From contig PGYS01000015.1 in the NCBI GenBank assembly GCA_002839795.1, positions 1 through 36,909 of the forward strand: a stretch of 36,909 nt of DNA. Direction: 5' to 3'. The notes beneath the pieces were generated by a model. The model was not told the origin of the DNA. It worked only from the letters and a program-made list of their open reading frames with translations, and did not search any database. Positions 1-22,996 of this stretch are shown in pieces. Made by a program: the position numbers and the translations under genes. The number at the start of each line of letters is the position of its first letter. Within the stretch, counting starts at the first letter, position 1. Source of the stretch: Ignavibacteriae bacterium HGW-Ignavibacteriae-3 (GTDB lineage Bacteria > Bacteroidota > Ignavibacteria > Ignavibacteriales > Melioribacteraceae).

Positions 1-98
1 TTACAATTTATTATGTTATTTTTTAATAAATGAAAAGCGTTTTAAGGGAAATAAATAATTAATTTATTTTTTTAGGATAAATCATATATGAAATTATT

Positions 99-248
99 AT
101 GCAGGACCCAGAACTTCAGAAAAAACTTGGCGATGCTCCGCCTGTATTTCTGAGAAGAGCAGCAAGAATTTTTGGATTTGCGGCATTAACAACCGGAATT
201 GTTTTAATTCTACTTATTATTTATTCAATGCTTTTCTTATACCAATAA
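99..248 (+). CDS. small single-pass membrane protein (49 aa)
   Basis: A 49-codon ORF begins at an ATG and ends 24 bases before the 16-heme cytochrome gene. Its first half is charged and soluble (MQDPELQKKLGDAPPVFLRR). From about residue 24 to 48 it is one continuous hydrophobic helix ending in YQ. The arginine-rich stretch before the helix suggests the N-terminus stays in the cytoplasm. I do not recognise the family. Its place just ahead of a membrane cytochrome fits a small accessory subunit, but that is inference. The nearest Shine-Dalgarno-like run (AGGA at 74-77) is better spaced for an ATG at 88 in another frame, which gives only a 21-residue peptide, so the start is uncertain. Confidence 0.45.
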   Translation: MQDPELQKKLGDAPPVFLRRAARIFGFAALTTGIVLILLIIYSMLFLYQ

Positions 249-272
249 TTTACTATTTACGGAGTGCGATTA

Positions 273-2690
273 ATGTATTCTTCTTCAAAAAAATTGTTTA
301 TAGGTAACTGCCTCTTTTTGTTTATTCTTTTTCTAAGTTCAAAGTCATTCGCGCAGGAATTTAACTGCGCCGATTGCCACGAGAACGTAATTCAAAAATC
401 GGTTCACAACGAAGTTATCGGCTGCCAGGATTGTCACGATGGGATAAAAGATGAGAGTCATGCCGAGAAGAAGAAATACACAAAAGTTAAATGTGAAAAC
501 TGCCATGAAGAGTACGCCAATTTAGTTAACAGCGATATTCATCATAGACTCAAAGGAAGAGTAAAGACTCCACCCGATTGTAAAAAATGCCATGGCACTC
601 ATGAAATAAAAACTCCGCCAAAAGAGAATAAATTAAAAGTGAAGGAATACTGTTCCAAGTGTCATACAAGCATGATTCTTGCCAATCCATACCACTCAAA
701 AGCAGTTGAGGGGAATAAATGTATAAGCTGTCACAAGCAAAATGGTTTTACTAAACTCAGTGAATCAGTTCACAAAAACCTGGAATGCGCAGATTGCCAC
801 AATTACATTTCTCATAATCTTACTAATCATTCCAAGAATGTTGTCGCCACGCAAAAAGCGGATTGCTATCTGTGCCATTCATCAATCGCCAAGGAACATA
901 GAGAAAGTATTCATGGCATTTCGTTATATGAAGGAATTGATGAAGCCGCAATGTGCTGGAACTGTCATGGTTCCCATGAAATTAAAAAAGTAAAGGATCA
1001 ATTAAGCCTCGTTTACCCCACAAACCTTGGAGCTACGTGCGGTAAATGTCATGACAACCCAAATCTTGTTAAGAAATTTTCATTCGGTGTTAAAAATCCC
1101 GGACTACTATATTCGACTTCTGTCCATGGCCAATTAGTAGCTAAGGGAAGTTTAAGTTCGGCAAACTGCAGTCTGTGTCACGGTGTCCACGATATTAAAA
1201 ACCGGGTTCAGCCGGGCTCTAAAATATCGTCATTTAATGTACCCGAAACCTGCGGGCAATGTCACCGGCAAATAGCTGATGAATATGAAAAATCAGTTCA
1301 TTGGATTCGTGCGAAAAAGGGAGTTCGCGAGTCTCCCGTTTGTAATGATTGCCACAATGAACATAGCATTCACGCTGTAAATACTCTCGACAAAAAAATA
1401 GAAGCTAAAAAACTTCAGCAGCGAACATGTATGATTTGCCATCAGGATCCGAAAATAGCTGAGCGATTCGGTGGAACCGGAAGCCAGGCTAAACAATACG
1501 AGGATAGTTATCATGGTCTGGCAGTCATGCGGGGTGATAAAGATGCCGCAATGTGCGTAGACTGCCACAGCATCCACAAAATTCTTCCCGAGAATAATCC
1601 TGAATCCACGGTTAGCCAGGCTAACATTACGGCAACGTGTAAAAAATGCCATCCGGAAGCAACTGATACATTCGCAAAAAGTTATTCTCACATGACCTTG
1701 GATCAGACAGCTTCCAAAATTGAGAGCATAGTAACTTTTATATATCAGTGGCTAATAATATTAGTCATTGGCGGAATGATCTTACATAATCTTCTGATTT
1801 TTGTTTTCGAAATAAAGAAAAAACGCCGTCACGAAAAGGGTGAAATTACAATACCGCGTTTTACGAAAAATGAAGTTATTCAGCATCTACTTCTTCTTAC
1901 TTCATTTATAATTCTTGCTGTAACGGGATTCGCACTCAAATATCACAGCAGCTGGTGGGCTGAACTCCTTCACATGTTTGGATTAAGCGAAACTGCCCGC
2001 CAGTATACGCATCGTGTCTCCGCGGTAGTGATGATTGTTGCCAGTCTCTACCACATCTATTATTTAGCCTTCACTGCTCGCGGAAGAGACTTGCTTAAAA
2101 ACCTCATCCCAAAATTTCACGATCTTACCGATGCGAGAGATAATATTCTGTACTATCTAAAGCTGAAAAAAGAGAAGCCAAAATTTGAAGCGTATGATTA
2201 CACGGAAAAAGCAGAATACTGGGCTCTTATCTGGGGTACTATAGTTATGGGAGTAACCGGTTTTATCCTATGGTTCCCTACTGTAGTTGGAGATTGGGCA
2301 CCGGTTTGGCTGATCAAAGTAAGTGAATTAATTCATTTTTATGAGGCCATTCTTGCGACACTTGCTATTCTTGTCTGGCATTGGTTCTTTGTAATTTTTC
2401 ATCCCAATGAATACCCCATGAGCTTAACCTGGATAGACGGAAAAATGTCGCTTCATAAATACCGTCATCATCATGAAAAGCACTTTAGAAGAGTGGTTCT
2501 GGACTGGAAAGAGTATAAAAAAGGAATTAAAGATCAGAATAAACTTAGCAACAGCACAAATCTTTTCACCTCTACATTGGAGAAGAACGGATTAAATCCC
2601 GATCTTATTATTCAGCACGAAATTGACAACGATCCGGAATTAAGAGTATGGCTGGAGGAAAAACTTGAGCCCAAGGTGGATAATGAGTAA
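273..2690 (+). CDS. 16-heme c-type / cytochrome b fusion, CbcL-like inner-membrane quinol oxidase
   Basis: An 805-residue protein with a signal peptide (hydrophobic to about residue 28, ending SFAQ). The periplasmic part, to about residue 480, has 16 CXXCH heme c motifs (CADCH, CQDCH ... CKKCH). The C-terminal part has about five membrane helices (roughly 488-510, 534-555, 577-600, 649-671, 686-710) with histidines in a cytochrome b561/formate-dehydrogenase-gamma-like arrangement. The same c-plus-b architecture occurs in Geobacter CbcL, a quinol-oxidising inner-membrane cytochrome of metal respiration with nine c hemes, so this is a longer relative or analogue. The ATG at 273 is chosen over the GTG at 264 because GGAG at 261-264 is correctly spaced for it. 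The inferred role is moving electrons from quinol to periplasmic cytochromes. The acceptor cannot be read from sequence. Confidence 0.85.
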   Translation: MYSSSKKLFIGNCLFLFILFLSSKSFAQEFNCADCHENVIQKSVHNEVIGCQDCHDGIKDESHAEKKKYTKVKCENCHEEYANLVNSDIHHRLKGRVKTPPDCKKCHGTHEIKTPPKENKLKVKEYCSKCHTSMILANPYHSKAVEGNKCISCHKQNGFTKLSESVHKNLECADCHNYISHNLTNHSKNVVATQKADCYLCHSSIAKEHRESIHGISLYEGIDEAAMCWNCHGSHEIKKVKDQLSLVYPTNLGATCGKCHDNPNLVKKFSFGVKNPGLLYSTSVHGQLVAKGSLSSANCSLCHGVHDIKNRVQPGSKISSFNVPETCGQCHRQIADEYEKSVHWIRAKKGVRESPVCNDCHNEHSIHAVNTLDKKIEAKKLQQRTCMICHQDPKIAERFGGTGSQAKQYEDSYHGLAVMRGDKDAAMCVDCHSIHKILPENNPESTVSQANITATCKKCHPEATDTFAKSYSHMTLDQTASKIESIVTFIYQWLIILVIGGMILHNLLIFVFEIKKKRRHEKGEITIPRFTKNEVIQHLLLLTSFIILAVTGFALKYHSSWWAELLHMFGLSETARQYTHRVSAVVMIVASLYHIYYLAFTARGRDLLKNLIPKFHDLTDARDNILYYLKLKKEKPKFEAYDYTEKAEYWALIWGTIVMGVTGFILWFPTVVGDWAPVWLIKVSELIHFYEAILATLAILVWHWFFVIFHPNEYPMSLTWIDGKMSLHKYRHHHEKHFRRVVLDWKEYKKGIKDQNKLSNSTNLFTSTLEKNGLNPDLIIQHEIDNDPELRVWLEEKLEPKVDNE

Positions 2691-2837
2691 ATAAGCCGGA
2701 TATTTAAATTAGAGTCGAATTAAGGAAGGTTGCCTATTTTACACAAATGGGCTATATTTAAATAAGATTAATAAGTTCTTTTATATATTTCACTGTAATC
2801 ATTATCATTCATAAAAATATTCCATGGAGGAATTAAA

Positions 2838-3362
2838 ATGAATTACAAAACAACTTTACTCACATTGATTATTGCTGCCTTTCTTGTTCTTCCCTCGAAT
2901 CTGAGAGCTCAGGCAAAATATGTCGGAACTAAATCATGCAGCATGTGCCATAAAACCGAAAAACAAGGACAGCAATTTAAAATTTGGCAGGACAGCAAAC
3001 ATTCACAAGCCTATAAAGCTCTATTAACTGCTAAGGCCGATGAGATCTCGGCAAAAAAAGGCGGAAAGAAAGCCGCTGAAAATCCAGAATGCTTGAAATG
3101 CCACGTCGGTGACGCATCATTAATTGCCTCAGCATTTAAGGAAGACGGAGTACAGTGCGAAACGTGTCATGGTGCCGGCTCAGAGTACAAGGCCATGAGC
3201 GTTATGAAAAACAAAGCTGAATCAATCAAAAAAGGCATGACCGAATTCAAAGACGTTGAAAAGTTTTGCACTACTTGTCATAATTCCAATAGCCCGACTT
3301 TCAAGGAATTCAAGTTTTCAGAAATGTTGAAAAAAATTGCTCACCCAACACCAAAAGGATAA
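2838..3362 (+). CDS. tetraheme cytochrome c554-like periplasmic carrier
   Basis: A 174-residue protein with a Sec signal peptide ending near residue 25 (LRAQA) and four CXXCH motifs: CSMCH, CLKCH, CETCH and CTTCH. The first motif sits in YVGTKSCSMCHK followed by a WQDSKHSQAY segment, the pattern of the cytochrome c554 family. A strong Shine-Dalgarno GGAGG lies just before the ATG. The barrel gene starts 21 bases after its stop, so it probably heads the operon running to 6903, and it lies 147 bases after the 16-heme gene. A soluble shuttle between the inner-membrane cytochrome and the outer-membrane conduit is the likely role. Nitrogen-cycle functions known for some c554 proteins are not supported by any neighbour here. 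Confidence 0.85.
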   Translation: MNYKTTLLTLIIAAFLVLPSNLRAQAKYVGTKSCSMCHKTEKQGQQFKIWQDSKHSQAYKALLTAKADEISAKKGGKKAAENPECLKCHVGDASLIASAFKEDGVQCETCHGAGSEYKAMSVMKNKAESIKKGMTEFKDVEKFCTTCHNSNSPTFKEFKFSEMLKKIAHPTPKG

Positions 3363-3383
3363 TCTTACTTCTTAGAGCTAAAA

Positions 3384-4652
3384 ATGAAAAAAATATTTTT
3401 GTTAGTATTGTTTTTAAGCCTGCCATTAATGATTTCTGCTCAGAATCTTAATGGCAGTATCTCTTCCTCATTTTACACATTTGAAAGATTTGATGATCTG
3501 AACACTTCCGACACATTCATCCGCAACTACGAAGCATTGTCTCTCAATTTTAATTACAATAAAGTTTCTCTCAGAACAAGATTAAATTTTGAAACAAATC
3601 TCGGCAACACGCTTGAGAGCGATCCGAGACTAAGATTTTACAATTTATTTCTTGAAGCACGGGACATTTTTGATGTATTCACAGTAAAATTGGGAAGACA
3701 GCCACTGTTTACGCCGGTTGGCGGCGGATTGTACGATGGTGTCAATCTAAAGTTCAGGTATTCCGGAGTTTCATTAACGGGATTTTACGGCGGGAACGTA
3801 CCGGCATACCAGAAGTTGAATATCACCAATGATTTTAAAAATGATTATGTACTGGGCGGAAAATTTGAAGTGAACTTTCTTAATCACTTTAATTTCGGAC
3901 TGAGCTACATCGATAAGAATTTCAAACCGATGGATTTCACTGCCTGGCGCCTCGATGGAAATTTAAATCTTATCCAGGTTCTCATAGAACAAAAATCCAA
4001 TCAGTATAAATTTATGACCGCGGAAGCATCGTATTTTCTGGACGGGAAAATTAATCTTGATACTCGCTATGAGTATGACGTCAATTATAAAACAACGTCA
4101 AAATTTGAGGTCAGCGGACGAGTTCAGGCAACCGGAGAATTGGGCGTTGATGTTTATTATAATTTCCGCGAACCGAAGATAAGGTATAACTCAATCTTTT
4201 CTGTTTTCGATTATGGAAACTCCCAGGAAATAGAAGGCGGAGTTGATTATAAATTCAGCAAGGATGTGACTGTTTTTGGTAAATACGGCTATGTGAAATA
4301 CAAAGACGAAAATTCCGGACGCATTAATTTAGGCACAACTACCAAGTACGGAACTTTAAGCTACCGCAGAACATTTGGATATGCCGGAGAACTCTACGTA
4401 ATATCATTTTACACGGGACATTCCTTCGCGGACGGATTTATAACCCCTTCCGTAGGTATTGCATTTACAAATTACAAATTATCCCCTGATGCCGAAGTGA
4501 ATAATATCACGACATTATTGGGCGGAATTAATCTGAGACCCGGGAAAGAGTTTTCGTTCGATCTGCAGGGTCAATATTTCAACAACAAAATTTACAAGAA
4601 TGATTTCAGAATCCTGTTCAAAGTAAATTACTGGTTCAATACTAATCTCTAG
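3384..4652 (+). CDS. outer-membrane beta-barrel, putative porin of a porin-cytochrome conduit
   Basis: A 422-residue protein with a signal peptide (residues 1-19, ending ISAQ). The rest is alternating polar and aromatic/aliphatic residues in short repeated strands with turns such as GGGLYDG and NDFKNDY, consistent with an outer-membrane barrel. There is no plug domain and no heme motif. The length is close to the porins of Geobacter porin-cytochrome complexes (about 400 residues) and much shorter than MtrB. It sits between a tetraheme and a 14-heme gene with gaps of 21 and 6 bases, which is the main argument that it sheathes a cytochrome wire. Sequence alone could also fit another porin. The barrel call is firm, the conduit role is inference. 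Confidence 0.75.
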   Translation: MKKIFLLVLFLSLPLMISAQNLNGSISSSFYTFERFDDLNTSDTFIRNYEALSLNFNYNKVSLRTRLNFETNLGNTLESDPRLRFYNLFLEARDIFDVFTVKLGRQPLFTPVGGGLYDGVNLKFRYSGVSLTGFYGGNVPAYQKLNITNDFKNDYVLGGKFEVNFLNHFNFGLSYIDKNFKPMDFTAWRLDGNLNLIQVLIEQKSNQYKFMTAEASYFLDGKINLDTRYEYDVNYKTTSKFEVSGRVQATGELGVDVYYNFREPKIRYNSIFSVFDYGNSQEIEGGVDYKFSKDVTVFGKYGYVKYKDENSGRINLGTTTKYGTLSYRRTFGYAGELYVISFYTGHSFADGFITPSVGIAFTNYKLSPDAEVNNITTLLGGINLRPGKEFSFDLQGQYFNNKIYKNDFRILFKVNYWFNTNL

Positions 4653-4658
4653 ATAATT

Positions 4659-5867
4659 ATGAAAATAAAATATTTTTATACTGCCTTAGCCCTTACTCTT
4701 ATTTGTTTTTTGACAATTGCGGCAATTAGCAAAGATGCACCGGGTCACGAAGGAGCAACGAACAAAGATATTATCAAATTCTCTCATAAGGTTCACAAAG
4801 AAGTTACTGATTGCGCATCCTGTCATACACTGGCCGGTGAAAGTACTTCACTTAACACCCGCCTTCTTCCCGAAAAATCAGTTTGTGCAACCTGCCATGA
4901 TGTGGATGATGATAAGAATTGCAACCTCTGCCATTACGATGAAAAATACGAACCGCTTCTAATGAAAAAAGCCGAATTAATATTCGATCATAAATTCCAT
5001 ACCGCCGATCAAAAAATGGCCTGTGAATCCTGTCATAAAGGATTGGGCGAGGTTGATTATAGTTTTGAGTCCATTACCGCAAAACCAGCGATGATTGTAT
5101 GCTATGATTGCCATAATGGAAATTCTGTCGCCGCCAATGTGTGCGAATCCTGCCATATTTCAACAGCGGGGCTTACTCCGCAGGATCATAAGCAGGTATC
5201 ATTCTTCAAAAATCACAAATTCAGCGCGTCAAGAGAAAATTCCCAGTGCCAGATGTGTCATGACAACACTTTCTGCGAATCATGTCATACTTCCACAACA
5301 ATGATCACAGAGAAAAACAGTGCGCGTGATTTTTATACCCCCTATTCCCCTCATAAATACACTGATAATACAAAACAGCAGGCCATAACCCGCGTGCATG
5401 ATTTGAATTACCAGTACACTCACGGAATTGAATTAAAGGGGAAAACGAACGAATGCCAGACATGTCATCAGCCTGAAGTATTCTGCGGTAAATGTCATGA
5501 TTCCAATTCAAAGGATTTTGCACTTTCCGGAAATATTCCAAAGTCTCATAAAGCTCCGAATTTTGTAACAATCGGCGTCGGAACGGGCGGCGGACAGCAC
5601 GCAGTGCTTGCAAGAAGAGACATTGAAAATTGTTCGTCATGCCACGATGTACAAGGTGCAGACCAAAACTGTATTCTATGCCACGTTGATAATGACGGAG
5701 TGAAAGGTACGAATCCAAAAACACATGCAAGAAATTTCGGACGCGATTTTGATAAGGGAGACTGGCATTCCGATCGCGGATCAGTTTGTTATTCATGCCA
5801 TACGGATGCCAATGCACGCCCAGGAGGAATTAAAGGGGTCGGTTTCTGCGGCTATTGTCATAACTAA
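4659..5867 (+). CDS. 14-heme periplasmic c-type cytochrome
   Basis: A 402-residue protein with a signal peptide (about 1-24, no convincing lipobox) and 14 CXXCH motifs spread to the last residues (CASCH, CATCH, CNLCH ... CGYCHN). Extra histidines (FSHKVHK, FDHKFH, HKFSAS) lie where distal ligands of bis-histidine hemes are expected. The gene starts 6 bases after the barrel stop, so the two are probably translationally coupled. In known porin-cytochrome complexes (OmaB/OmbB, MtrA/MtrB) the partner of the barrel is a periplasmic cytochrome of 8 to 10 hemes. This one is larger but is in the right place. Which side of the outer membrane it occupies cannot be proved from sequence. Confidence 0.85.
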   Translation: MKIKYFYTALALTLICFLTIAAISKDAPGHEGATNKDIIKFSHKVHKEVTDCASCHTLAGESTSLNTRLLPEKSVCATCHDVDDDKNCNLCHYDEKYEPLLMKKAELIFDHKFHTADQKMACESCHKGLGEVDYSFESITAKPAMIVCYDCHNGNSVAANVCESCHISTAGLTPQDHKQVSFFKNHKFSASRENSQCQMCHDNTFCESCHTSTTMITEKNSARDFYTPYSPHKYTDNTKQQAITRVHDLNYQYTHGIELKGKTNECQTCHQPEVFCGKCHDSNSKDFALSGNIPKSHKAPNFVTIGVGTGGGQHAVLARRDIENCSSCHDVQGADQNCILCHVDNDGVKGTNPKTHARNFGRDFDKGDWHSDRGSVCYSCHTDANARPGGIKGVGFCGYCHN

Positions 5868-5889
5868 AATTATAACTCTCGGATAGATT

Positions 5890-6903
5890 ATGAGATATAC
5901 AAAATTATATTTTACCTTTATCGTTGTAATGGGAATGCTTTCGTTTTCGTGCAGTGATTTACAGCAGGATATTACTGTTCCATCCAAGGTGAGTTTACAC
6001 GGTGTGGGTGTGTTAAATCCTTCTTCCGCATCTTATCACGGATTATCAGTAAAGGAAAAAAAGCTGGAAAGCTGCAGGCAATGTCACGCCTCCGATTTAA
6101 CCGGCGGCACTGCTTTTACTACCTGCAATACGTGCCATCCAGCACTGACCATTCATAACTCTAATATTAATAATCCGTCCTCAGCAGGATTTCACGGCAG
6201 ATATATTGCTTCAAAGAATTGGAGTATGAGTTCCTGCACAATGTGCCATGGAATAAATTATGCCGGCGGTGTTGCAAGTCCTTCATGTAATACTTGTCAT
6301 AAAAATGCCGGCGGTCCCGAAGCGTGCAATACCTGCCACGGCAGCTTTGCAAATCCTGCTTTAATAGCACCTCCCACTGATCTTAGCAGAAATATTGATG
6401 CAAAATTTCCCGGCGTGGGCGCTCACAATGCCCATTTATTCACAGCTAAAATCGGAGCCGTTGCATTTTGCAATGACTGCCATATCGTACCCGCAAGTTA
6501 TTCGGCAGCAGGTCATATTGACAATTCACCAAGGGCGGAACTTCTTTTCCCCAAAAAGAACAATTTTGAGACGGGAAATGCCTCTTACAATTATACCAGC
6601 TACACATGTTCCAATACATATTGCCATGGTGGATTTGCCTTCTTAAAATCAAACTCGCCATACGCGTTTGCCTACACTGCCGATAAGATAGAGGGAAATG
6701 TTAATCTTCCTGTCTGGAACAAGGTTGACGGAACTCAGATGGCCTGCGGCTCCTGCCACGGTCTTCCCCCGAAAGGGCATATGGATGCGAAACTTGAAAG
6801 TTGCGGTACGTGTCATCAGGGAATTGTAGATAAGACCGGAAAGATAATCGACGCGACAAAACATATGAACAGAAAAATAAATGTCTTTAATCTTGAGTAT
6901 TAA
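5890..6903 (+). CDS. 9-heme outer-membrane lipoprotein cytochrome with CX4CH motif
   Basis: A 337-residue lipoprotein with signal MLSFSC and lipid-bearing Cys21, a loose Bacteroidota-type lipobox. It has eight CXXCH motifs and one expanded CX4CH (CSNTYCH, residues 240-246). The segment from CSNTYCHGG through PVW to CGSCHGLPP matches the layout of the Geobacter CxxxxCH...CXXCH cytochrome family found in surface cytochromes. Residues 42-83 and 94-136 are an imperfect internal repeat built on NPSSA, HG, CxxCH, GG and CNTCH. It follows the 14-heme gene by 22 bases and is last before the terminator at 6920. The likely place is the outer-membrane surface, as terminal or penultimate reductase. The substrate is unknown. 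Confidence 0.83.
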   Translation: MRYTKLYFTFIVVMGMLSFSCSDLQQDITVPSKVSLHGVGVLNPSSASYHGLSVKEKKLESCRQCHASDLTGGTAFTTCNTCHPALTIHNSNINNPSSAGFHGRYIASKNWSMSSCTMCHGINYAGGVASPSCNTCHKNAGGPEACNTCHGSFANPALIAPPTDLSRNIDAKFPGVGAHNAHLFTAKIGAVAFCNDCHIVPASYSAAGHIDNSPRAELLFPKKNNFETGNASYNYTSYTCSNTYCHGGFAFLKSNSPYAFAYTADKIEGNVNLPVWNKVDGTQMACGSCHGLPPKGHMDAKLESCGTCHQGIVDKTGKIIDATKHMNRKINVFNLEY

Positions 6904-6919: not shown

Positions 6920-6945
6920 AAGCCGCTTTAGAGCGGCTTTTTTTT
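6920..6945 (+). terminator. rho-independent terminator of the conduit operon
   Basis: A perfect 8-bp stem, AAGCCGCT with AGCGGCTT around a TTAG loop, runs into an eight-base T tract 17 bases after the 9-heme gene stop. It separates the cytochrome operon from the regulator gene. Confidence 0.9.
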
Positions 6946-6981: not shown

Positions 6982-8316
6982 ATGTCCATAAGCGATAACT
7001 TAAAAGACCATATACTTGACTCGATTGCCGAAGGTGTTTTTACCGTAGACAAAGATTTTAAAATAAATTTTTTCAATAAAGCCGCAGAAAAAATTACCGG
7101 ATACAAACGCGACGAGGTGCTTGGAAATTTCTGCAAGAATGTTTTCCGCTCACAGGTATGCTATTCAAATTGTCCTATAGCTATAGTTTTAAGGACCCAG
7201 AATAATCTTTACGATTTTGAATCGGTGATAAAAACTTGTGTTGGAGATGAGAAAACTATTAAGCTCAATGCCGCGGTTCTTTACAACGATTTAAATGTGC
7301 CGGTCGGCGGGATTGTATCATTCAGGAATCTTTACGAGTTCGAAGCGATAGGGATTGATTTACAAAAAGAAACTTTCTTCAACGGTATAATCGGCCACAG
7401 CCGTCAGATGAAGGAAATTTTTGAATTGATAGAGGAGATTTCGGAGACCGATGCACCGGTGTTCATTCAAGGTGAATCCGGAACAGGAAAAGAACTTGTA
7501 GCTAACGCAATTCAAAAATTGTCTAACAGAAAAAATAATCCGTTTGTTAAAATTAATTGTTCGATATTTCCTTCAAACCTTCTCGCCAGTGAATTATTCG
7601 GACACGTTAAAGGTGCGTTCACGGATGCATTTAAAGACCGCCCCGGAAGATTCGAAGTAGCAGAGAAGGGTACTATTTTTCTGGATGAAGTTGCAGAGAT
7701 GCCTCTTCAGATGCAGATTCAGCTGCTTCGTGTTCTTCAGGAGGGAACTTTTGAAAGAGTCGGTGAATCAATCACCCGCAGAGCCGACGTTCGCGTTATA
7801 GCGGCAACGAATATTAATATAAAAGACGCACTTAAAAAGGGCCAGTTCAGGGAGGATCTGTTTTACCGGTTGAATGTCATTCCTATCGTGATTCCCCCGC
7901 TAAGGGAAAGACCGGAAGATATTATTCCCCTGGTGAAATATTTTTTAAATAAGTTTTCTCTTTTTTATAAAAAACAGATAACCGAATTGGAAGAAGGCGC
8001 ATTCGAGATTTTGTTGAATTACCAATGGCCCGGTAACATTCGCGAACTGGAAAATGCAATTGAGTATGCTTTCGTAAGAACAATTAAGAAAAACATTATA
8101 GAATCAGCTAAGCTCCCCGTGAGCATTATCGAAGGAGTAAAAAGTCCCCCCGTAAAATCAACCTTAACATTTTTCCCGGTCTCAAAAGAACGTGCAGATC
8201 TTCTTTTCCTTCTTGAAAAAAATCTATGGAACAAGAGCAAAGTTGCAAAGGAGCTTAACATAGGACGTACCACTCTATGGCGTAGGATGAAGAAATTAGG
8301 GTTAACGAACCAATAA
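6982..8316 (+). CDS. sigma-54-dependent activator: PAS, AAA+, Fis-type HTH
   Basis: A 444-residue bacterial enhancer-binding protein. A PAS domain spans about 10-115. The AAA+ domain has Walker A GESGTGKE at 164-171, GAFTDA (a variant of GAFTGA) at 211-216, Walker B TIFLDE at 231-236 and the arginine region FREDLFYR at 289-296. A helix-turn-helix lies at about 415-440 ([18 protein letters not shown]). It has no receiver domain, so it is a direct sensor rather than a response regulator. The PAS domain holds Cys51, Cys60, Cys64 and Cys86, a possible redox or metal site. It sits between the two cytochrome transcription units, and a -24/-12 promoter lies 156 bases after its stop, so the 11-heme/rhodanese operon is the obvious target. 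Confidence 0.93.
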
Positions 8317-8471: not shown

Positions 8472-8487
8472 TGGCATTTAAGTTGCA
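8472..8487 (+). promoter_or_regulatory. sigma-54 (-24/-12) promoter for the 11-heme/rhodanese operon
   Basis: TGGCATTTAAGTTGCA fits the consensus TGGCAC-N5-TTGCA with one mismatch and exact GG-to-GC spacing. It lies 48 bases before the 11-heme gene, giving a leader of about 37 bases. Location directly after a sigma-54 activator gene and its putative enhancer sites supports the call. Confidence 0.78.
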
Positions 8488-8534: not shown

Positions 8535-9908
8535 ATGAAAATGCGATTCATAATACCGTTATTATGTGTATCCGCGCTGTTTGCATTCATAAGCTGCGCT
8601 GACAAAGATACCGAAGATCTAAATGAACCCTCCCCAACGATTGAGAAATCCATCGCTTCCTGCGAGGGCTGCCATACAAATTATACTACATTAAAAAAAG
8701 TTTATTCCCCTGATCCCGTTGAAAGCGAAGGCGCCGGGTGCGGCGGCGAAACGCCACACTTCGAGCCTTATGACCGCGTTTATCTCGGCGGAGACGGATA
8801 TCAGACTTTCAAAAACAATATTCATGGAAAAATGCCTTGTGTGGCTTGCCATAACGGAGTAGACGGCACAAGCGATAAGTCAAAGGCACACTCAGGTAAT
8901 TTTATTAAAAAACCATCCTCGCGAAGTGATGCTAAATGCGCAAGCTGCCACCCGGACGTTTACAATCGCACAAAGAACAGTATTCATGAACAAGGATGGG
9001 GACAAAAATCTATGGTGGTTCTCCGATCCGGTTTATCAAATATTCCGAGCGGATTCGATCAGCTGTCCTCGGTTATGAAAGAGGGATACGATAAAAACTG
9101 CGGCAAATGCCATGCTTCCTGCGGTGACTGCCATGTGAATAGACCAAAGGCGGGAGGCGGCGGTTTGGCAAACGGGCATGCATTTACAAAAACTCCGGAC
9201 ATGCGAAATGTTTGCGTTACGTGCCATGTAAGCAGAGGTGGTCATGCCTACTTTGGCCAGGCTGCAGGAACGGTACCAGATGTGCATCTTACAAAAAAGC
9301 AATTTACGTGTCTGAATTGTCACACACAAAATGAAATTCATGGCGACGGTAATATATATGATCAACGTTATAAAATGGGAATGCTTCCAAAATGCCAGAA
9401 TTGCCATACAGGCATTGAAAAAAGCAACAATTATCATCAGGCACATTTAAATTCATTTTCATGCAATACCTGCCATTCACAGGATTATAATAATTGCGGA
9501 AGCTGCCATATAGGCGGCGAAGGTGCGCGAATACCTTCCTATCAGGGATTCAAAATTGGAATGAATCCAATTCCTGAAACAAAGACATTCAAGTATGCAG
9601 TATTAAGACAATCTCTTACGGCCCCTGACAGCTGGAAAAACTATGGTGTGGCAACACTCCCTAAATTTGATGCTAAACCAACATATAAATACTCCACACC
9701 GCACAACATCATTCGATGGACATCACGCACAACGGTTGGTACCGGCAAAGCTTGCTATGACGCATGCCATGTTATAAAGAACACTGACGGAACTTACAGA
9801 AATAAACAACTCTATTTATTCAAGAGCGATCTACAAAGCTGGGAGTTAAGTGCCACGCAATCCATTACCGTTGACGGCAAACTTCCCTCCAAATGGGATG
9901 TTAAATAA
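8535..9908 (+). CDS. 11-heme outer-membrane lipoprotein cytochrome
   Basis: A 457-residue lipoprotein with signal ending FAFISC and lipid Cys21, followed by an acidic ADKDTED stretch like Bacteroidota surface-export signals. It has ten CXXCH motifs, two almost fused (CGKCHASCGDCH), and one expanded CX3CH (CYDACH, Cys407-His412). After the last CXXCH, near residue 330, there is a long heme-poor region containing only the CX3CH, possibly a substrate or docking part. It is controlled by the sigma-54 promoter at 8472, separately from the conduit operon, and the rhodanese lipoprotein follows after 61 bases. A conditionally expressed surface reductase is the best guess. I cannot assign it to a characterised family. 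Confidence 0.83.
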   Translation: MKMRFIIPLLCVSALFAFISCADKDTEDLNEPSPTIEKSIASCEGCHTNYTTLKKVYSPDPVESEGAGCGGETPHFEPYDRVYLGGDGYQTFKNNIHGKMPCVACHNGVDGTSDKSKAHSGNFIKKPSSRSDAKCASCHPDVYNRTKNSIHEQGWGQKSMVVLRSGLSNIPSGFDQLSSVMKEGYDKNCGKCHASCGDCHVNRPKAGGGGLANGHAFTKTPDMRNVCVTCHVSRGGHAYFGQAAGTVPDVHLTKKQFTCLNCHTQNEIHGDGNIYDQRYKMGMLPKCQNCHTGIEKSNNYHQAHLNSFSCNTCHSQDYNNCGSCHIGGEGARIPSYQGFKIGMNPIPETKTFKYAVLRQSLTAPDSWKNYGVATLPKFDAKPTYKYSTPHNIIRWTSRTTVGTGKACYDACHVIKNTDGTYRNKQLYLFKSDLQSWELSATQSITVDGKLPSKWDVK

Positions 9909-9969
9909 TTTGTTATACACTAAACATATAAAATCAATGCAACACAAAACAAACAAAGGAGTTACAAAA

Positions 9970-10989
9970 ATGAAGCTTAGAAATCTTTTTTATCTGATGT
10001 TAGTACTTCCCTTTTTATTCATTTATACGGGATGCAGCAAGACTGAGGATAGCCCTGTCGAGCCGACTGCGGTTAATGAAGCACAGGTTCTTGCCGAGTA
10101 CTTAGAAGCTAACGGCGATTTTTTGAATTTAACTGCTCCCGCAGTAATTACAGCCACAGATGTAAATTCACTGCGCTTAACAAATCCTACAAAATTGCTG
10201 GTGATTGATATCCGCAGCGCTTCTGACTTTGAAACTAAAGGTCATATCGAAGGAGCCAAACAAGTTGACCTAAAAAATATTGTTACATACATGCAGACCG
10301 CAAATTCGACGCAATATGAAAAAGTTGTGATTGCATGCTATTCAGGACAGACCGCTGGTTATGCCGTATCACTTCTAAGACTGTTGGGCTATACAAATGT
10401 ATTTTCACTTAAATGGGGAATGTCTTCCTGGAATGCATCCTGCGCATCATCCTGGGCAGCTCCGAGTATCGGAAACAATTATACAAATTTCGTTACTACT
10501 TCAACACCTAAAGCCGCCGCCGGAAGTTTACCTGTCCTGAATACCGGAAAGAAAACCGGTAAAGAAATCCTTGAGGCCAGAATAAGTACACTTTTGGCAA
10601 CTGCCAGCGCGAGCCCATTTGACGATATCAAAGTTGCATGGGGCACGGTAACTGGCGCGCTTTCAAATTATTATATTGTCAATTACTGGTCACAGACAGA
10701 CTACGATAAAGGTCATCTTCCCGGCGCAATTCAGTATACCCCAAAAGCTGACTTAAAATTATCAGCTAATTTGAAAACATTACCGACTAACAAGACTATT
10801 GCACTATATTGCTACACGGGACAAACTTCAGCACAGGTAGTTACGATCCTTAAAATTTTGGGTTACGATGCAAAATCTTTATTATTCGGTGTTAACAGCA
10901 TGAACTATGATTGGATGGCCACCGCAGGAATTTCAAATCAATTTAAATCAACAGAAATAAACGCTTTTCCTTTCGTAACCGGTAAGTAA
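9970..10989 (+). CDS. lipoprotein with two rhodanese domains
   Basis: A 339-residue lipoprotein (IYTGC, lipid Cys22, then SKTED). Two rhodanese-like domains follow: the first about 60-160 with active-site loop CYSGQT (Cys123), the second about 195-320 with CYTGQT (Cys281). Both catalytic cysteines are present. The DIR motif of the first domain is replaced by NYW in the second. The frame is open upstream to 9850, but the ATG at 9970 has GGAGTT six bases before it and starts the signal peptide. It is probably co-transcribed with the 11-heme gene and ends at a strong terminator. Rhodaneses move sulfane sulfur, so a link to polysulfide or thiosulfate is possible. Many rhodanese-fold proteins have other roles. 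Confidence 0.88.
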   Translation: MKLRNLFYLMLVLPFLFIYTGCSKTEDSPVEPTAVNEAQVLAEYLEANGDFLNLTAPAVITATDVNSLRLTNPTKLLVIDIRSASDFETKGHIEGAKQVDLKNIVTYMQTANSTQYEKVVIACYSGQTAGYAVSLLRLLGYTNVFSLKWGMSSWNASCASSWAAPSIGNNYTNFVTTSTPKAAAGSLPVLNTGKKTGKEILEARISTLLATASASPFDDIKVAWGTVTGALSNYYIVNYWSQTDYDKGHLPGAIQYTPKADLKLSANLKTLPTNKTIALYCYTGQTSAQVVTILKILGYDAKSLLFGVNSMNYDWMATAGISNQFKSTEINAFPFVTGK

Positions 10990-11525: not shown

Positions 11526-11667
11526 TTCAGCTTATTAGCCCCGATTTTCAACATATTACCTCATTTTCCCTGCTTTAGAAAGATTTTGGAGCCGTTTTTT
11601 CATAATTTTGGGTTCACAAAATCGGATGTTTTTGATCCGTGAAGTAACAATTTAATTAAGAGTGAAG

Positions 11668-12492
11668 ATGCTTCAATCAATTTATCTCTTTAATATACTT
11701 TTGCCGGTATTTTATTTTTTGGTTTTCATTATCTACGGATATGACTTCTATCAGGAAAATAAGACCGTAAATAATTCAAAGCGAATCATATTATTTATAA
11801 CGCTGCTGCTGCACACTTTTTTCCTGGTCTCCAGAACAATAGAATATAATCACCCTCCTATCACGAACAAATTTGAGATTTTTTCAATTATATCTTTCTC
11901 TATTGGTTTTTCCTACTTTGTACTTGAACTTCTGACCGATATCAGAGGCACAGGTACATTCATAATTTTCTTTTCATTTCTGTTTCAGATAATCTCATCA
12001 CTTTTTGTTGAGCATACATATATAGTGCCCGAAGTTTTGAGAAACCGTCTGCTGGGGCTTCATGTTATTAGTGCGCTTTTAGGTTATTCCGGAATTACTA
12101 TCTCCGCTGTTTATGGTTTATTATATCTGCTGCTCTACAAAAACCTGAAATCGAACAAATTCGGATTGATTTTTAACCGGCTGCCTAATCTGGAAATTTT
12201 GGAGAAACTAAGTTTTTATTCGGCAGTCATCGGATTTGTTCTCTTAACTTTTGCCATTGTGATTGGAATAATCTGGCTTCCAAGCGCGTTTCCGGAATTC
12301 TCCTACTATGACCCGAAGCTTATAGGAACCTTTATAGTCTGGCTGATTTATGGAATCGGCATAGTGAATAAATTTTTGGAGAAATTGTACGGAAGAAAAG
12401 TAATACTTTATTCTTTATTTGGTTTCATTGTTGCCATTATGTCTCTTATAATCACGAATACGTTAGCAAAGACGTTTCACTCGTTTTATTGA
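11668..12492 (+). CDS. HemX/CcsA-like integral membrane protein
   Basis: A 274-residue protein with about eight membrane helices. The order and conserved histidines (LLHTFF near residue 48, LGLHVIS near 128) fit the CcsA/HemX family of cytochrome c assembly proteins, and its place directly before hemA is where hemX sits in Bacillus and relatives. The tryptophan-rich heme-handling loop of true CcsA (WGWDP type) is degraded to SYYDPKLIGT, so heme ligation may be lost or altered. A GTG at 11662 is in frame; the ATG at 11668 is equally likely. HemA starts 10 bases downstream. In Bacillus HemX lowers GtrR (HemA) level; a like role here is inference. Confidence 0.75.
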   Translation: MLQSIYLFNILLPVFYFLVFIIYGYDFYQENKTVNNSKRIILFITLLLHTFFLVSRTIEYNHPPITNKFEIFSIISFSIGFSYFVLELLTDIRGTGTFIIFFSFLFQIISSLFVEHTYIVPEVLRNRLLGLHVISALLGYSGITISAVYGLLYLLLYKNLKSNKFGLIFNRLPNLEILEKLSFYSAVIGFVLLTFAIVIGIIWLPSAFPEFSYYDPKLIGTFIVWLIYGIGIVNKFLEKLYGRKVILYSLFGFIVAIMSLIITNTLAKTFHSFY

Positions 12493-12502
12493 AAGTTTTA
12501 AA

Positions 12503-13828
12503 ATGAATTTAGTCGGTATATCTATAAATCATAATACATCCCCTCTCGAACTTCGCGAGGCGGTTCATCTGAGCCGCAGTGATATTGTCGAATTCATACC
12601 GCTTTTGAAAAAAAAATATTTTTCTGAAGGAGTAGTAATTTCCACCTGCAACAGAACGGAGATTTTCGGTTTTCCGGAGAGTTCAGGGCTTGATCCCGAA
12701 CCGCTTATGGAAGTACTGATGGAATTCAAATCCGGTGCGGATATAAAACCCCAACACATTAAAAGATACTTTTCATGCGGTGCAGTTAAACATTTATTCG
12801 CAGTAGCTTCAGGAATCGATTCTCTCATCATCGGAGACAGTCAGATTCTCGGCCAGGTTAAAGAGGCGTTTGAGATATCTGAAGATCTTAACTTTGCAGG
12901 TTCCGTCCTTAGGAGGATTTTTGATACGGCGACTCGTGTAGGTAAGCGGGCAATTAAAGAAACAACTATAGGTGAAGGCGCCGTAACAGTTAGTTACGCC
13001 GCAGTCCAGGTCGTTGAAAAAATATTTGCGAATCTTGAGCGCAAATCTGCTCTTATAATCGGAGCCGGAGAAACCGGCGAACTTGCAGCGGTTCATTTGC
13101 ATGATAAAGGCATAGGTAAAATCGCAATTTCAAACAGATCAGTAGACAGGGCCGAAAAATTGGCCGGCAAAGTCCACGGCGAGATTGTGCCGTTTCAACT
13201 CCTTGGCGAACATCTTCATAATTACGATATTATAATCAGTGCGACCAGCGCGGAAAAACTTATAGTTACATTTGAAAATGTAAGCTCCGCAATGAAAAAA
13301 AGGAGAGGGTCTCCGGTAGTTTTAATGGATATTGCTGTTCCCCGTGATATTGATCCCGAAGTAAAAAAAATTGATAATGTTTTCTATCATGATATGGATT
13401 CTCTAAAGATTATTGTTGGGCAGAATGTGCAGAAGCGTAAAGATCAGATTCCGCTTGTCGAGAAAATAATTATGGAAGAACTTATAGGATTTTTCGGCTG
13501 GTATAATACACTGGACGTTGTTCCGACCATTAAAACAATGAGATCATTTTTCGAAGAAATAAGGAAAGATGAGCTTGAAAAGATCAGAAATAAGGTTAGC
13601 GATGAAGATTATGTTAAAATTGAAGATATGACACGGAGGATGATCGGCAGGCTGCTTCATAATCCGACGGTTAAATTAAGGGAGTTTGCGGAAACAGGGG
13701 CGAATATAAACGACGTCACAACCAACACAATGATTTTAAAAGAACTATTCAATCTGGATCATCCATCGGACAACGGCGATGATACCGGCAGTAAAATAAA
13801 TTGCAAGGAAGAACTTGACAAAAAATAA
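12503..13828 (+). CDS. hemA: glutamyl-tRNA reductase
   Basis: A 441-residue enzyme reducing glutamyl-tRNA(Glu) to glutamate-1-semialdehyde with NADPH, the first committed step of C5 heme synthesis. The catalytic cysteine is Cys49 in STCNRTEIF. The substrate motif GDSQILGQVK and the NADPH-binding LIIGAGETGELA follow in the usual order, with a helical dimerisation tail from about 320. Length is normal for the family. It overlaps hemC by 14 bases and is separated from the HemX-like gene by 10, so it is the first enzyme gene of a tight operon. Confidence 0.97.
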   Translation: MNLVGISINHNTSPLELREAVHLSRSDIVEFIPLLKKKYFSEGVVISTCNRTEIFGFPESSGLDPEPLMEVLMEFKSGADIKPQHIKRYFSCGAVKHLFAVASGIDSLIIGDSQILGQVKEAFEISEDLNFAGSVLRRIFDTATRVGKRAIKETTIGEGAVTVSYAAVQVVEKIFANLERKSALIIGAGETGELAAVHLHDKGIGKIAISNRSVDRAEKLAGKVHGEIVPFQLLGEHLHNYDIIISATSAEKLIVTFENVSSAMKKRRGSPVVLMDIAVPRDIDPEVKKIDNVFYHDMDSLKIIVGQNVQKRKDQIPLVEKIIMEELIGFFGWYNTLDVVPTIKTMRSFFEEIRKDELEKIRNKVSDEDYVKIEDMTRRMIGRLLHNPTVKLREFAETGANINDVTTNTMILKELFNLDHPSDNGDDTGSKINCKEELDKK

Positions 13829-14759
13829 ACTCGTAATCGGATCACGCGGAAGCGAACTCGCGCTATGGCAGGCCAAATTTATCAAGAAAGAACTTGAGAG
13901 AAAAAATAAAAATCTTTCTGTCGAGATTAAGATTATAAATACTAAAGGCGATAAAATTCTTGATGTTGCTCTTTCAAAGATCGGAGATAAAGGACTCTTT
14001 ACCAAAGAGCTTGAAACTGAATTGCTGAAAGGTACGATTGATCTCGCGGTTCATAGTCTTAAAGATCTTCAGACAGAAATTCCCAATGGATTGAAACTTG
14101 CCGCGGTAACAAAACGGCACGCGGTGGAAGATGTATTAATTGCCCGTAAAAAAGGCGTAAAGATCAGTAATTTGCCCGTTAATGCGGTTGTTGCTACGGG
14201 CTCGCTCAGAAGGAGATCTCAATTGCTTCATCTCCGCCCGGACATTAAAGTCGAAGAGCTTAGAGGCAATGTGCCTACACGGATAAGAAAATTTAAGGAC
14301 TCTAAGTGGGATGCGATTATATTAGCCCGTGCCGGCGTTGAGAGACTGAAACTCAATAAATATATTTCAAGTATTATCAAAACTGCCGAGATTTTACCCG
14401 CAGTCGGTCAGGGCGCATTAGGCATTGAGATCAGAGAAGACAATAAGCGTGCTGAAAAAGTTTTAAAATCTATTGATCACATAAAAACGTTTACAGCTGT
14501 CCGCGCTGAGCGTGCGCTCTTGAAAGCACTTGAAGGAGGATGCCAGGTTCCGATCGGTGCCTACGCGGAGGTAAAACCAAACGGATTATATCTTGAAGCA
14601 GTGGTTGGCTCTGTTGACGGTTCAATTACATTCAGGAAAAAATTATGCGGTACGAAAACCAATCCTGAAAAACTTGGACAAAAATTAGCAAAGGACCTTT
14701 TGAAAGCGGGTGCAGATTCTGTGCTAAAAGATGTTTATAACAGTGTGCGTTCAAAGTGA
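13815..14759 (+). CDS. hemC: hydroxymethylbilane synthase (porphobilinogen deaminase)
   Basis: A 314-residue enzyme joining four porphobilinogens into hydroxymethylbilane. Seen: the N-terminal IGSRGSELALWQ, the catalytic Asp84 in HSLKD, the arginine cluster GSLRRRSQ, and Cys243 in EGGCQVPIGAY, which carries the dipyrromethane cofactor. Translation must start at TTG 13815, inside the end of hemA, because there is no ATG before the conserved N-terminus; AAGGAAG lies just upstream. It ends in a GTGA overlap with hemD. Confidence 0.97.
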   Translation: MTKNKLVIGSRGSELALWQAKFIKKELERKNKNLSVEIKIINTKGDKILDVALSKIGDKGLFTKELETELLKGTIDLAVHSLKDLQTEIPNGLKLAAVTKRHAVEDVLIARKKGVKISNLPVNAVVATGSLRRRSQLLHLRPDIKVEELRGNVPTRIRKFKDSKWDAIILARAGVERLKLNKYISSIIKTAEILPAVGQGALGIEIREDNKRAEKVLKSIDHIKTFTAVRAERALLKALEGGCQVPIGAYAEVKPNGLYLEAVVGSVDGSITFRKKLCGTKTNPEKLGQKLAKDLLKAGADSVLKDVYNSVRSK

Positions 14760-15541
14760 ACTTGCTGATAAATAAAACAATATTAATCACCAAGAGCGAA
14801 TCGGATGCTAAAAATAATCTCGATCTTTTGATAAATGAAGGCGCGGAAATAATTTATTGTCCGACGATTAAAATAATACCGGCAGTAAATTCTCCGGAAC
14901 TGGACGATGCTTTGATGATGTTTAATAATTTTAATTATCTGATATTCACGTCATCTAATGCCGTTGATGTCTTTACGGCTGTCGCAAGGGAAAGGAAGAT
15001 CAATTTATCAAGAATAAAAGTTGCTGCTGTCGGCATAAGTACGGCTGAAAAGTGTGAGGCCAGTGGAATAACAGTTGATATTTTACCGGATGAATTCAGC
15101 TCCAGCGGATTGATTGATAAGTTTTTAGAATTTGATCTGACCGGCAAAAAAATACTAATCCCCGGCTCTTCCTTCTCACGCAGTGAATTAAGTGAGGGTC
15201 TTAGAGAGCTTGGTGCGGAAGTGTATTCGGTTCCGATTTATGATGTTGCCACAAATGATATCGGCAGCTTAAAAAATATACACAAGAAGATTCAGAGGAA
15301 ACATCCGAACTTATTCGTTTTTACCAGTCCTTCTTCTTTTTACGGATTTCTAAAAATTATGAGTGTCGCTGATACAGATAAATATTTTTTATCAAGTATT
15401 ATTTGCTCAATCGGTTCAACAACGGAAAGCGCAGTCAGAGAAAAAGGACTTTCTGTTCACATAGTACCACAAGTATTCTCGCTGCATGGAGTTTCTGAAG
15501 CGATAATAAATTATTATAAACTTACTGCCAACATGGCTTAA
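14756..15541 (+). CDS. hemD: uroporphyrinogen-III synthase
   Basis: A 261-residue protein of the HemD fold, which closes hydroxymethylbilane with inversion of ring D. The family is divergent; seen here are the N-terminal KTILITKSE, the TSSNAV loop near residue 65, ILIPGSSFSRSEL in the middle and FTSPSSFYGF in the C-terminal half. The start is GTG 14756, overlapping the hemC stop by four bases. Position between hemC and hemE makes the assignment secure despite low conservation. Confidence 0.93.
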   Translation: MNLLINKTILITKSESDAKNNLDLLINEGAEIIYCPTIKIIPAVNSPELDDALMMFNNFNYLIFTSSNAVDVFTAVARERKINLSRIKVAAVGISTAEKCEASGITVDILPDEFSSSGLIDKFLEFDLTGKKILIPGSSFSRSELSEGLRELGAEVYSVPIYDVATNDIGSLKNIHKKIQRKHPNLFVFTSPSSFYGFLKIMSVADTDKYFLSSIICSIGSTTESAVREKGLSVHIVPQVFSLHGVSEAIINYYKLTANMA

Positions 15542-15552
15542 TTGGAGGATTC

Positions 15553-16599
15553 TTGACCAAATTAAAAAACGATTTGTTTCTTAGAGCTTGCAAGGGAAAA
15601 CCCGTTGAATACACGCCCATTTGGATAATGCGCCAGGCGGGCAGATATCTGCCTGAGTACCGTGCGGTCCGGAAAAAATCAGATTTTATATCAATGTGCA
15701 AAACACCGGAACTTGCCGCTGAAGTAACAATTCAGCCGGTGGATCTTATCGGGGTTGACGCGGCTATTATCTTCTCCGATATTTTAGTTATACCCGAGGC
15801 AATGGGAATGCATCTTGAAATGATCGAAAGTAAAGGACCAAAACTGCATAATCCTATACGATCAATGGATGGCATCAACAAGCTAAAAACTATTGACCCC
15901 TTCGAGGACTTGAAATATGTTCTTGACGCTGTTCGTTTAACAAAAAAGGAATTAAACGGACGTGTTCCTCTAATAGGTTTTGCCGGCTCTCCCTGGACTC
16001 TTATGACCTATATGGTTGAGGGTGGCGGTACAAAAAGTTTTTCTGAAATTAAAAAATTTATTTACAATCACCCGATGGCGGCTCATCTTCTGTTAGACAA
16101 AATTGCAGATACAGTTGCCGATTACCTTTCCGCTAAAATTGAAGCCGGGGCAAACGCTGTCCAGATTTTTGATACATGGGGCGGAATACTTTCTCCGACT
16201 GACTTTGAAGAATTTTCACTCAGGTACATTAAAAAGATCGTTTCAAATATCAGAAGAAAAGATGAGCCTGTAATTGTATTTGCAAAAGGCGTACATTACA
16301 AATTAGATGAACTCGCGGACTGCGGAGCAGATGTTATTGGGCTGGATTGGACGATGGAAATAGGGAAGGTTAGGAATAAGATCGGTGATAAGGTTGCATT
16401 ACAGGGGAACCTGGATCCGACAGTTTTATATGCTGATAAAGAAAAAATCAGAAATGAGGCAGTTAGAGTTCTAAAATCATTCGGCAAACATACAGGTCAT
16501 ATTTTCAATCTCGGTCATGGAATTCTGCCGGACGTTCCGCCGGAAAATGCGAAGTTTTTAGTGGATGTAGTGAGAGAAGAAAGTAAAAAATTTCACTGA
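15553..16599 (+). CDS. hemE: uroporphyrinogen decarboxylase
   Basis: A 348-residue enzyme removing four carboxyl groups from uroporphyrinogen III to give coproporphyrinogen III. The signature IWIMRQAGRYLPEYR lies at about residue 23, with GFAGSPWTL, FDTWGG and the C-terminal NLGHGILPDVP also present. The start is TTG 15553, four bases after GGAGG; no ATG precedes the conserved N-terminus. It lies 11 bases after hemD. The operon is interrupted after it by a decayed gene. Confidence 0.97.
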   Translation: MTKLKNDLFLRACKGKPVEYTPIWIMRQAGRYLPEYRAVRKKSDFISMCKTPELAAEVTIQPVDLIGVDAAIIFSDILVIPEAMGMHLEMIESKGPKLHNPIRSMDGINKLKTIDPFEDLKYVLDAVRLTKKELNGRVPLIGFAGSPWTLMTYMVEGGGTKSFSEIKKFIYNHPMAAHLLLDKIADTVADYLSAKIEAGANAVQIFDTWGGILSPTDFEEFSLRYIKKIVSNIRRKDEPVIVFAKGVHYKLDELADCGADVIGLDWTMEIGKVRNKIGDKVALQGNLDPTVLYADKEKIRNEAVRVLKSFGKHTGHIFNLGHGILPDVPPENAKFLVDVVREESKKFH

Positions 16600-16630
16600 A
16601 AGTAATATTATAAGAAAGGAATACTTTTGA

Positions 16631-16831: not shown

Positions 16832-16926
16832 CAACTTTTAATTTTATTAAATATATGTCAACTGAATAGAAGCATTCTTAGTTTTTGAGCGAAGATTCAT
16901 TTCTTCCTCTGATAATTGGAGTAATA

Positions 16927-18303: not shown

Positions 18304-18325
18304 TGGATTAAGAAAGGAACCTCAT

Positions 18326-22983: not shown

Positions 22984-22996
22984 GCACGGAGAAAAT

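What the first reader, a model, noticed from the sequence alone, without database searches (positions are those of the whole stretch)
273..6903. Candidate porin-cytochrome electron conduit in an Ignavibacteria-type genome
Five adjacent + strand genes encode a quinol-facing 16-heme/b fusion, a 4-heme carrier, an outer-membrane barrel, a 14-heme cytochrome and a 9-heme surface-type lipoprotein. The last four have gaps of only 6 to 22 bases and end at one terminator. Order and content match the logic of Geobacter and Shewanella conduits, but the component sizes differ (14 hemes next to the barrel, 9 in the lipoprotein), so it may be a separate lineage of conduit.
Basis: partly seen in the sequence, partly recalled or inferred. 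Interest (0 to 1): 0.85.

Follow-up and report, generated by a model that had tools for sequence, protein, structure and literature searches.

The report
Ignavibacteria outer-membrane electron conduit operon
These genes very probably build a protein wire that carries respiratory electrons through the outer membrane to targets outside the cell; the same kind of gene set was described in the related bacterium Ignavibacterium album in 2014, and here it proves to be widespread across the bacterial class.

Summary
Five + strand genes encode a 16-heme/b-type fusion, a 4-heme protein, a Cys-free outer-membrane barrel, a 14-heme cytochrome and a lipoprotein with 8 CXXCH plus one CX4CH. The last four are spaced 6-22 bp and end at a terminator.

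The most likely mechanism is a porin-cytochrome (Pcc) electron conduit. The idea is not new: Shi et al. 2014 (PMC4245776) described the Ignavibacterium album pcc cluster with this order, a 400-aa/14-heme cytochrome and an outer cytochrome with an atypical motif. They already called it distant from the other Pcc groups.

Added here: the barrel is found in 125/146 sampled genomes of the order and 95/149 of the class. A cytochrome of at least 10 hemes lies directly downstream in 76/78 loci. Fourteen hemes are kept in 54/61, and the CX4CH in 72/73. AlphaFold gives a plug-free barrel of about 24 strands (pLDDT 89). Its most conserved segment is a 17-residue loop that the model leaves unresolved. 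The quinol module is interchangeable (CbcL-like or ImcH/Rieske/cytochrome b). A sigma54-type module, an 11-motif lipoprotein plus a rhodanese lipoprotein, is linked to the conduit in a subset.

Direction, acceptor and physical assembly remain inferred. Verdict: new member of a known kind.

The parts
87..248 (+). C-terminal 53 residues of the upstream split diheme cytochrome b (second quinol module); the gene is cut off by the contig start
   Evidence: 91% identical to the C-terminus of the 284-aa cytochrome b of L035, which follows a 19-heme cytochrome
264..2690 (+). CbcL-like quinol oxidase: 16 c-heme motifs fused to a FdnI/HydC-type cytochrome b
   Evidence: 16 CXXCH; PF01292 E 5.5e-16, TIGR01583 E 2e-12; FdnI chain 1kqf_C E 0.002
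2732..2752 (.). imperfect inverted repeat GCCTATTTTACACAAATGGGC with a TATATTTA just after it; possible promoter/operator of the four-gene unit
   Evidence: recurs upstream of the 4-heme gene in close relatives; function not tested
2838..3362 (+). periplasmic 4-heme cytochrome (cytochrome c554-like), carrier between the inner membrane and the conduit
   Evidence: 4 CXXCH, PF13435 E 2e-14; precedes the barrel in 58/78 loci
3384..4652 (+). outer-membrane beta-barrel of the conduit, about 24 strands, no plug
   Evidence: AlphaFold model pLDDT 88.6, 24 strands; Foldseek best hits PapC/FimD 24-strand ushers; most conserved loop 263-279
4659..5867 (+). 14-heme cytochrome, predicted wire through the barrel
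   Evidence: 14 CXXCH; 14 proximal and 12 further His invariant in the 14-heme relatives; 54/61 relatives keep 14
5890..6903 (+). surface-type lipoprotein cytochrome, 8 CXXCH + 1 CX4CH
   Evidence: lipobox Cys21, TIGR01904 E 2e-11; CX4CH aligned in 72/73 relatives; C-S-[DE] after the lipid Cys
6920..6939 (+). intrinsic terminator of the four-gene unit
   Evidence: 8-bp stem, T run
6982..8316 (+). PAS-AAA+-Fis sigma54 activator of the linked surface module
   Evidence: PF00158 E 7e-69, PAS_9, HTH_8
8472..8487 (+). -24/-12 (sigma54-type) promoter-like site TGGCATTTAAGTTGCA
   Evidence: 1 mismatch; similar sites at -51 to -64 in relatives, 5/14 with <=2 mismatches vs 0.27 expected
8535..9908 (+). 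linked lipoprotein cytochrome, 10 CXXCH + 1 CX3CH
   Evidence: within 10 kb of the barrel in 16 of 44 genomes that hold both
9937..10989 (+). lipoprotein with two rhodanese domains, catalytic Cys present in both (CYSGQT, CYTGQT)
   Evidence: PF00581 E 1.5e-26, 2 stretches; loops and lipobox

Best explanation
This is the Ignavibacteria-type porin-cytochrome conduit. Menaquinol is oxidised at the inner membrane by the CbcL-like 16-heme/b protein (or, in relatives, by an ImcH/Rieske-cytochrome b module). Electrons pass to the 4-heme periplasmic protein, then to the 14-heme cytochrome threaded through the ~24-strand barrel, then to the surface lipoprotein cytochrome, and so to an extracellular acceptor (metal oxide, humics, an electrode or a sulfur species). 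Shown here: gene content, conserved order, heme motifs, predicted barrel fold, lipobox. Inferred: that the parts bind one another, the heme order, the direction (outward) and the acceptor.
For: Barrel in 125/146 order genomes, almost always one copy, and 95/149 class genomes. A cytochrome of >=10 hemes directly downstream in 76/78 loci, a further multiheme gene after it in 73/78, the 4-heme gene before the barrel in 58/78, all five genes in 22/78. Barrel to 14-heme gap usually 1-15 bp. Fourteen hemes kept in 54/61 and CX4CH in 72/73 although identities to the window proteins fall to 30-45%. Barrel model with ~24 strands and no plug. Even the one distant barrel outside the class is followed by 12-heme and 8+3-heme genes. 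Quinol-facing modules adjoin the conduit: fused b-type here, NapC/NirT plus Rieske plus cytochrome b in L088. Same gene set in I. album, PMC4245776.
Against: No physical or genetic evidence for any member. The 14-heme model is poor in its C-terminal half (pLDDT <50), so insertion was not modelled. I. album was reported unable to grow on Fe(III) or Mn(IV) oxides (PMC4245776). Foldseek TM-scores of the barrel are only 0.3-0.55. Barrel and 14-heme distances correlate (r=0.90), but each also correlates 0.86-0.90 with the housekeeping gene hemA, so this shows shared descent rather than binding.
Confidence: 0.87

Rival explanations
1. The barrel is an ordinary substrate porin and the cytochromes form a purely periplasmic respiratory chain; the lipoprotein faces the periplasm.
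For: No curated conduit-barrel model hits the barrel; Pfam gives only weak Porin_4. Foldseek hits include ordinary porins.
Against: 76/78 barrels sit immediately before a >=10-heme gene; only two weak paralogues lie away from cytochromes (L113, L114). The most conserved segment is a loop, not a pore-lining strand. The lipoprotein carries C-S-[DE]-rich residues after the lipid Cys, reminiscent of Bacteroidota surface-export signals (known from memory, not tested).
Confidence: 0.07
2. The conduit's main job is extracellular sulfur, selenium or tellurium chemistry: the sigma54-controlled 11-motif lipoprotein and the twin rhodanese lipoprotein are its dedicated terminal enzymes, as proposed around Geobacter extHIJKL.
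For: 11-motif lipoprotein within 10 kb of the barrel in 16/44 genomes holding both, and next to the conduit in another family of the class (L080, L081); intact rhodanese Cys loops; Geobacter extHIJKL has a rhodanese lipoprotein and extI loss impairs selenite/tellurite reduction (PMC6148476).
Against: Most barrel genomes lack the module at the locus, and neither the barrel nor the rhodanese hits Ext-named families in NCBIfam. It looks like an accessory branch with its own promoter.
Confidence: 0.12
3. The conduit runs inward, taking electrons from Fe(II), cathodes or partner cells into the quinone pool.
For: CbcL/MtoC/MtrH homologues occur in both Fe(III) reducers and Fe(II) oxidisers without sequence signs of direction (PMC6295460).
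Against: Known relatives are chemoheterotrophs; Melioribacter reduces Fe(III) (PMC6137239); Ignavibacteria are enriched on anodes (PMC7399161).
Confidence: 0.06

Closest known systems
Ignavibacterium album pcc cluster IALB_1840-1837 (Shi et al. 2014, PMC4245776)
   Same: Order periplasmic c-Cyt, porin, 14-heme ~400-aa cytochrome, outer-membrane cytochrome with an atypical heme motif; one cluster per genome
   Different: Here the lipoprotein has 8+1 motifs and a CbcL-like gene lies upstream; IALB sequences could not be fetched by name, so identity to them was not measured
Geobacter sulfurreducens Pcc (OmbB-OmaB-OmcB) and ExtABCD
   Same: Barrel + periplasmic multiheme cytochrome + lipoprotein cytochrome(s); variable lipoprotein against a conserved barrel/cytochrome pair (PMC6148476)
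   Different: 8-heme OmaB and 12-heme OmcB against 14 and 9 here; reported as distantly related (PMC4245776)
Shewanella MtrCAB
   Same: Same overall logic
   Different: MtrB_PioB (PF11854) not found in the held genome; 14-heme protein far below the DmsE/MtrA cut-off (21 against 192 bits)
CbcL/MtrH/MtoC quinol oxidoreductases (PMC6295460)
   Same: N-terminal multiheme part fused to FdnI-like cytochrome b; 3-23 hemes known, Ignavibacteriae members listed
   Different: 16 hemes; hydropathy shows 5 rather than 6 membrane helices in the C-terminal part
Geobacter extHIJKL
   Same: Rhodanese lipoprotein associated with a conduit
   Different: No Ext-family model hits the barrel or rhodanese; here the rhodanese sits beside an 11-motif lipoprotein cytochrome

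Membership tests
Porin-cytochrome (Pcc) conduit | Outer-membrane barrel gene next to a periplasmic multiheme cytochrome gene | tested here: met
   76/78 loci; barrel model pLDDT 88.6
Porin-cytochrome (Pcc) conduit | Outer-membrane lipoprotein cytochrome in the cluster | tested here: met
   lipobox, 8 CXXCH + CX4CH; further multiheme gene in 73/78
Porin-cytochrome (Pcc) conduit | 18-22 transmembrane strands predicted for the porin | tested here: inconclusive
   AlphaFold model 24 strands, amphipathicity 22-24 peaks; published counts used another method
Porin-cytochrome (Pcc) conduit | Sequence homology of the barrel to Geobacter OmbB | not testable with these tools
   no Geobacter sequence could be fetched; Shi 2014 found the I. 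album set with Omb/Oma/Omc queries
Porin-cytochrome (Pcc) conduit | The parts form one complex that moves electrons across the membrane | not testable with these tools
   needs purification and a proteoliposome assay
I. album-type pcc | 14-heme, ~400-aa periplasmic cytochrome and outer cytochrome with atypical motif in the same order | tested here: met
   402 aa, 14 CXXCH; CX4CH against the published description
MtrCAB/MtoAB | MtrB_PioB barrel (PF11854) | tested here: not met
   0 matches in the genome
MtrCAB/MtoAB | Decaheme MtrA/DmsE family | tested here: not met
   TIGR03508 21.4 bits against cut-off 192
CbcL/MtrH/MtoC | Multiheme N-terminus fused to FdnI/HydC-like cytochrome b | tested here: met
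   16 CXXCH, PF01292, TIGR01583
CbcL/MtrH/MtoC | Six transmembrane helices | tested here: inconclusive
   hydropathy finds five after the signal peptide; some published members have five or four
Geobacter Ext (ExtH/ExtI) | Match to Ext-named family models | tested here: not met
   barrel and rhodanese give no Ext-named hit; only a weak ExtM hit for 8535-9908

The most novel reading that the evidence does not exclude
Ignavibacteria carry their own, vertically inherited conduit lineage: a ~24-strand barrel enclosing a 14-heme wire long enough to cross the membrane alone, with swappable quinol oxidases and surface cytochromes, plus a sigma54-switched rhodanese/11-motif branch that sends electrons to extracellular sulfur compounds.
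Probability: 0.2. Interest if true: 0.6.

Novelty: new member of a known kind. Interest (0 to 1): 0.35.

Why it matters
Ignavibacteria are found on anodes and in iron-rich sediments, yet a 2024 study still calls the extracellular electron transfer mechanism of Ignavibacteriaceae 'not known' (PMC10874420). Showing that one conduit is a near-universal, mostly single-copy core of the order gives that question one obvious target.

Tried and rejected
MtrB-type conduit in the genome: none. Solved relatives of the barrel by sequence: none. The small ORF near 99-248 looked like a separate one-helix subunit; it is the C-terminus of the truncated upstream cytochrome b. Co-evolution of barrel and 14-heme protein as proof of binding: rejected, because hemA correlates as well. 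A sigma54 promoter for the conduit operon itself: not found (1 of 54 upstream regions). Structure of the 14-heme protein: low confidence, not interpreted beyond the N-terminal c7-like half. Plasmid-borne relatives of the 14-heme protein: none. Fetching I. album or Geobacter sequences by name was not possible; the single genome-contig scan returned two close relatives only.

Full report
WHAT IS THERE. and one search confirm five + strand genes. 264-2690 encodes 808 aa with 16 CXXCH and a b561/FdnI-type membrane domain. 2838-3362 encodes a 4-heme cytochrome c554-like protein. 3384-4652 encodes a Cys-free protein with a signal peptide. 4659-5867 encodes 14 CXXCH in 402 aa. 5890-6903 encodes a lipoprotein with 8 CXXCH and one CX4CH (CSNTYCH at aa 240). 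Gaps are 147, 21, 6 and 22 bp, and a T-tailed hairpin follows at 6920-6939.

HOW CONSERVED. A search with the barrel finds it in 95 of 149 class genomes and 125 of 146 order genomes, almost always once. With a profile, 57 of 58 positive genomes in the phylum sample belong to the class; the one outside (G377, E 2.6e-13) still has 12-heme and 8+3-heme genes directly downstream (L112). In 78 loci read in detail, 76 have a cytochrome of at least 10 hemes directly after the barrel, 73 then a further multiheme gene, 58 the 4-heme gene before the barrel, and 22 all five genes. One of the two exceptions (L115) is cut by a contig end, the other (L116) lacks the neighbour. The 14-heme count holds in 54 of 61 (12 in 5, 11 in 2); the lipoprotein varies from 3 to 28 CXXCH, but its CX4CH is aligned in 72 of 73.

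THE BARREL. AlphaFold2 with 58 homologues gives mean pLDDT 88.6 and 24 strands with no plug domain. Foldseek places the 24-strand ushers PapC and FimD among the top hits, with modest TM-scores of 0.4-0.55. An independent amphipathicity count on the alignment gives 22 peaks at threshold 2.5 against 12.8 +/- 2.2 in shuffles. So a wide lumen is plausible, although only a complex model or structure would show that a cytochrome fits. The most conserved 12-residue windows of the whole barrel lie at 261-279 (consensus REPxIRYNSIFSVFDYGN), the loop the model leaves unresolved (pLDDT <50 at 268-276). I infer, without proof, that this loop contacts the cytochrome.

THE 14-HEME PROTEIN. All 14 proximal His and 12 further His are invariant among the 14-heme relatives, enough for 12 bis-His hemes; the other two distal ligands are unidentified. 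Profile hits in the PDB are c7-type cytochromes, best 3ov0 (E 2e-27), with MtrA of 6r2q at E 1e-5. The AlphaFold model is unreliable after about residue 205.

INPUT SIDE. In the closest relatives the fused 16-heme/b gene is itself preceded by a 19-heme cytochrome plus separate cytochrome b (L035). Bases 87-248 of the window are the C-terminus of that cytochrome b, so the contig begins inside a second quinol module; bases 1-86 do not continue the frame and are probably an assembly edge. In another family (L088) a NapC/NirT-type protein with a CX3CH motif (ImcH-like), a Rieske protein, a cytochrome b and an 11-heme protein take that place. Swappable quinol modules feeding a constant barrel/14-heme core fit a conduit.

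OUTPUT SIDE. Downstream lie a PAS-sigma54 activator, an 11-motif lipoprotein and a twin-rhodanese lipoprotein. Of 44 order genomes with both the barrel and a strong match to the 11-motif protein, 16 have them within 10 kb (by chance well under one, my estimate from genome size). In two loci of a different family (L080, L081) they follow the conduit lipoprotein directly, without the activator. A -24/-12 site lies at 8472-8487 (sites of up to two mismatches occur about as often as chance across the whole window, so position and recurrence carry the weight). In 14 upstream regions 5 have at most 2 mismatches against 0.27 expected, at -51 to -64. So the activator probably switches this branch on rather than the conduit. 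Rhodanese lipoproteins also occur in Geobacter extHIJKL (PMC6148476), but no Ext-family model is met.

WHAT IS KNOWN. Shi et al. 2014 (PMC4245776) report the I. [quoted passage not shown] they state that 1839 and 1838 are distantly related to all five Pcc groups. PMC7399161, PMC6137239 and PMC6344600 report OmbB-like clusters in further Ignavibacteria. PMC6295460 lists CbcL homologues with 3 to 23 hemes, two from Ignavibacteriae. The finding is therefore a new member of a known kind. PMC10874420 (2024) still calls the mechanism in Ignavibacteriaceae unknown, so the gap is experimental.

LIMITS. No Geobacter sequence could be compared. Direction, acceptor and assembly are inferred.

Noticed in passing
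window 31017-32507 (-): 8-heme cytochrome with a type IX secretion C-terminal sorting domain (Por_Secre_tail E 2e-10): a likely secreted or surface cytochrome outside the conduit operon.
   Followed up: no
window 11662-26833 (+): CcsB-like cytochrome c biogenesis gene followed by a nearly complete heme biosynthesis cluster (hemA, C, D, E, N, protoporphyrinogen oxidase, hemB, hemL; ferrochelatase by eye). In about a dozen relatives ccsB-hemA directly follow the conduit lipoprotein.
   Followed up: partly
window 2732-2752: Imperfect inverted repeat GCCTATT...AATGGGC upstream of the 4-heme gene, recurring with changes on both sides in close relatives; possible operator or leader hairpin.
   Followed up: partly
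L052 and L078: Giant versions of the conduit lipoprotein with 28+1 and 26+3 heme motifs in the same position.
   Followed up: no
window 1-86: AT-rich contig start that breaks the frame of the upstream cytochrome b, probably an assembly edge.
   Followed up: partly
window 6982-8316, PAS domain near aa 50-66: Three closely spaced Cys ([16 protein letters not shown]) in the PAS domain of the sigma54 activator; could bind a metal or Fe-S cluster and sense redox.
   Followed up: no
L088 positions 437-4933 (oriented along the conduit): ImcH-like protein, Rieske, cytochrome b and 11-heme cytochrome in a row upstream of the conduit in another family: a bc-type complex apparently wired to a conduit.
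   Followed up: partly
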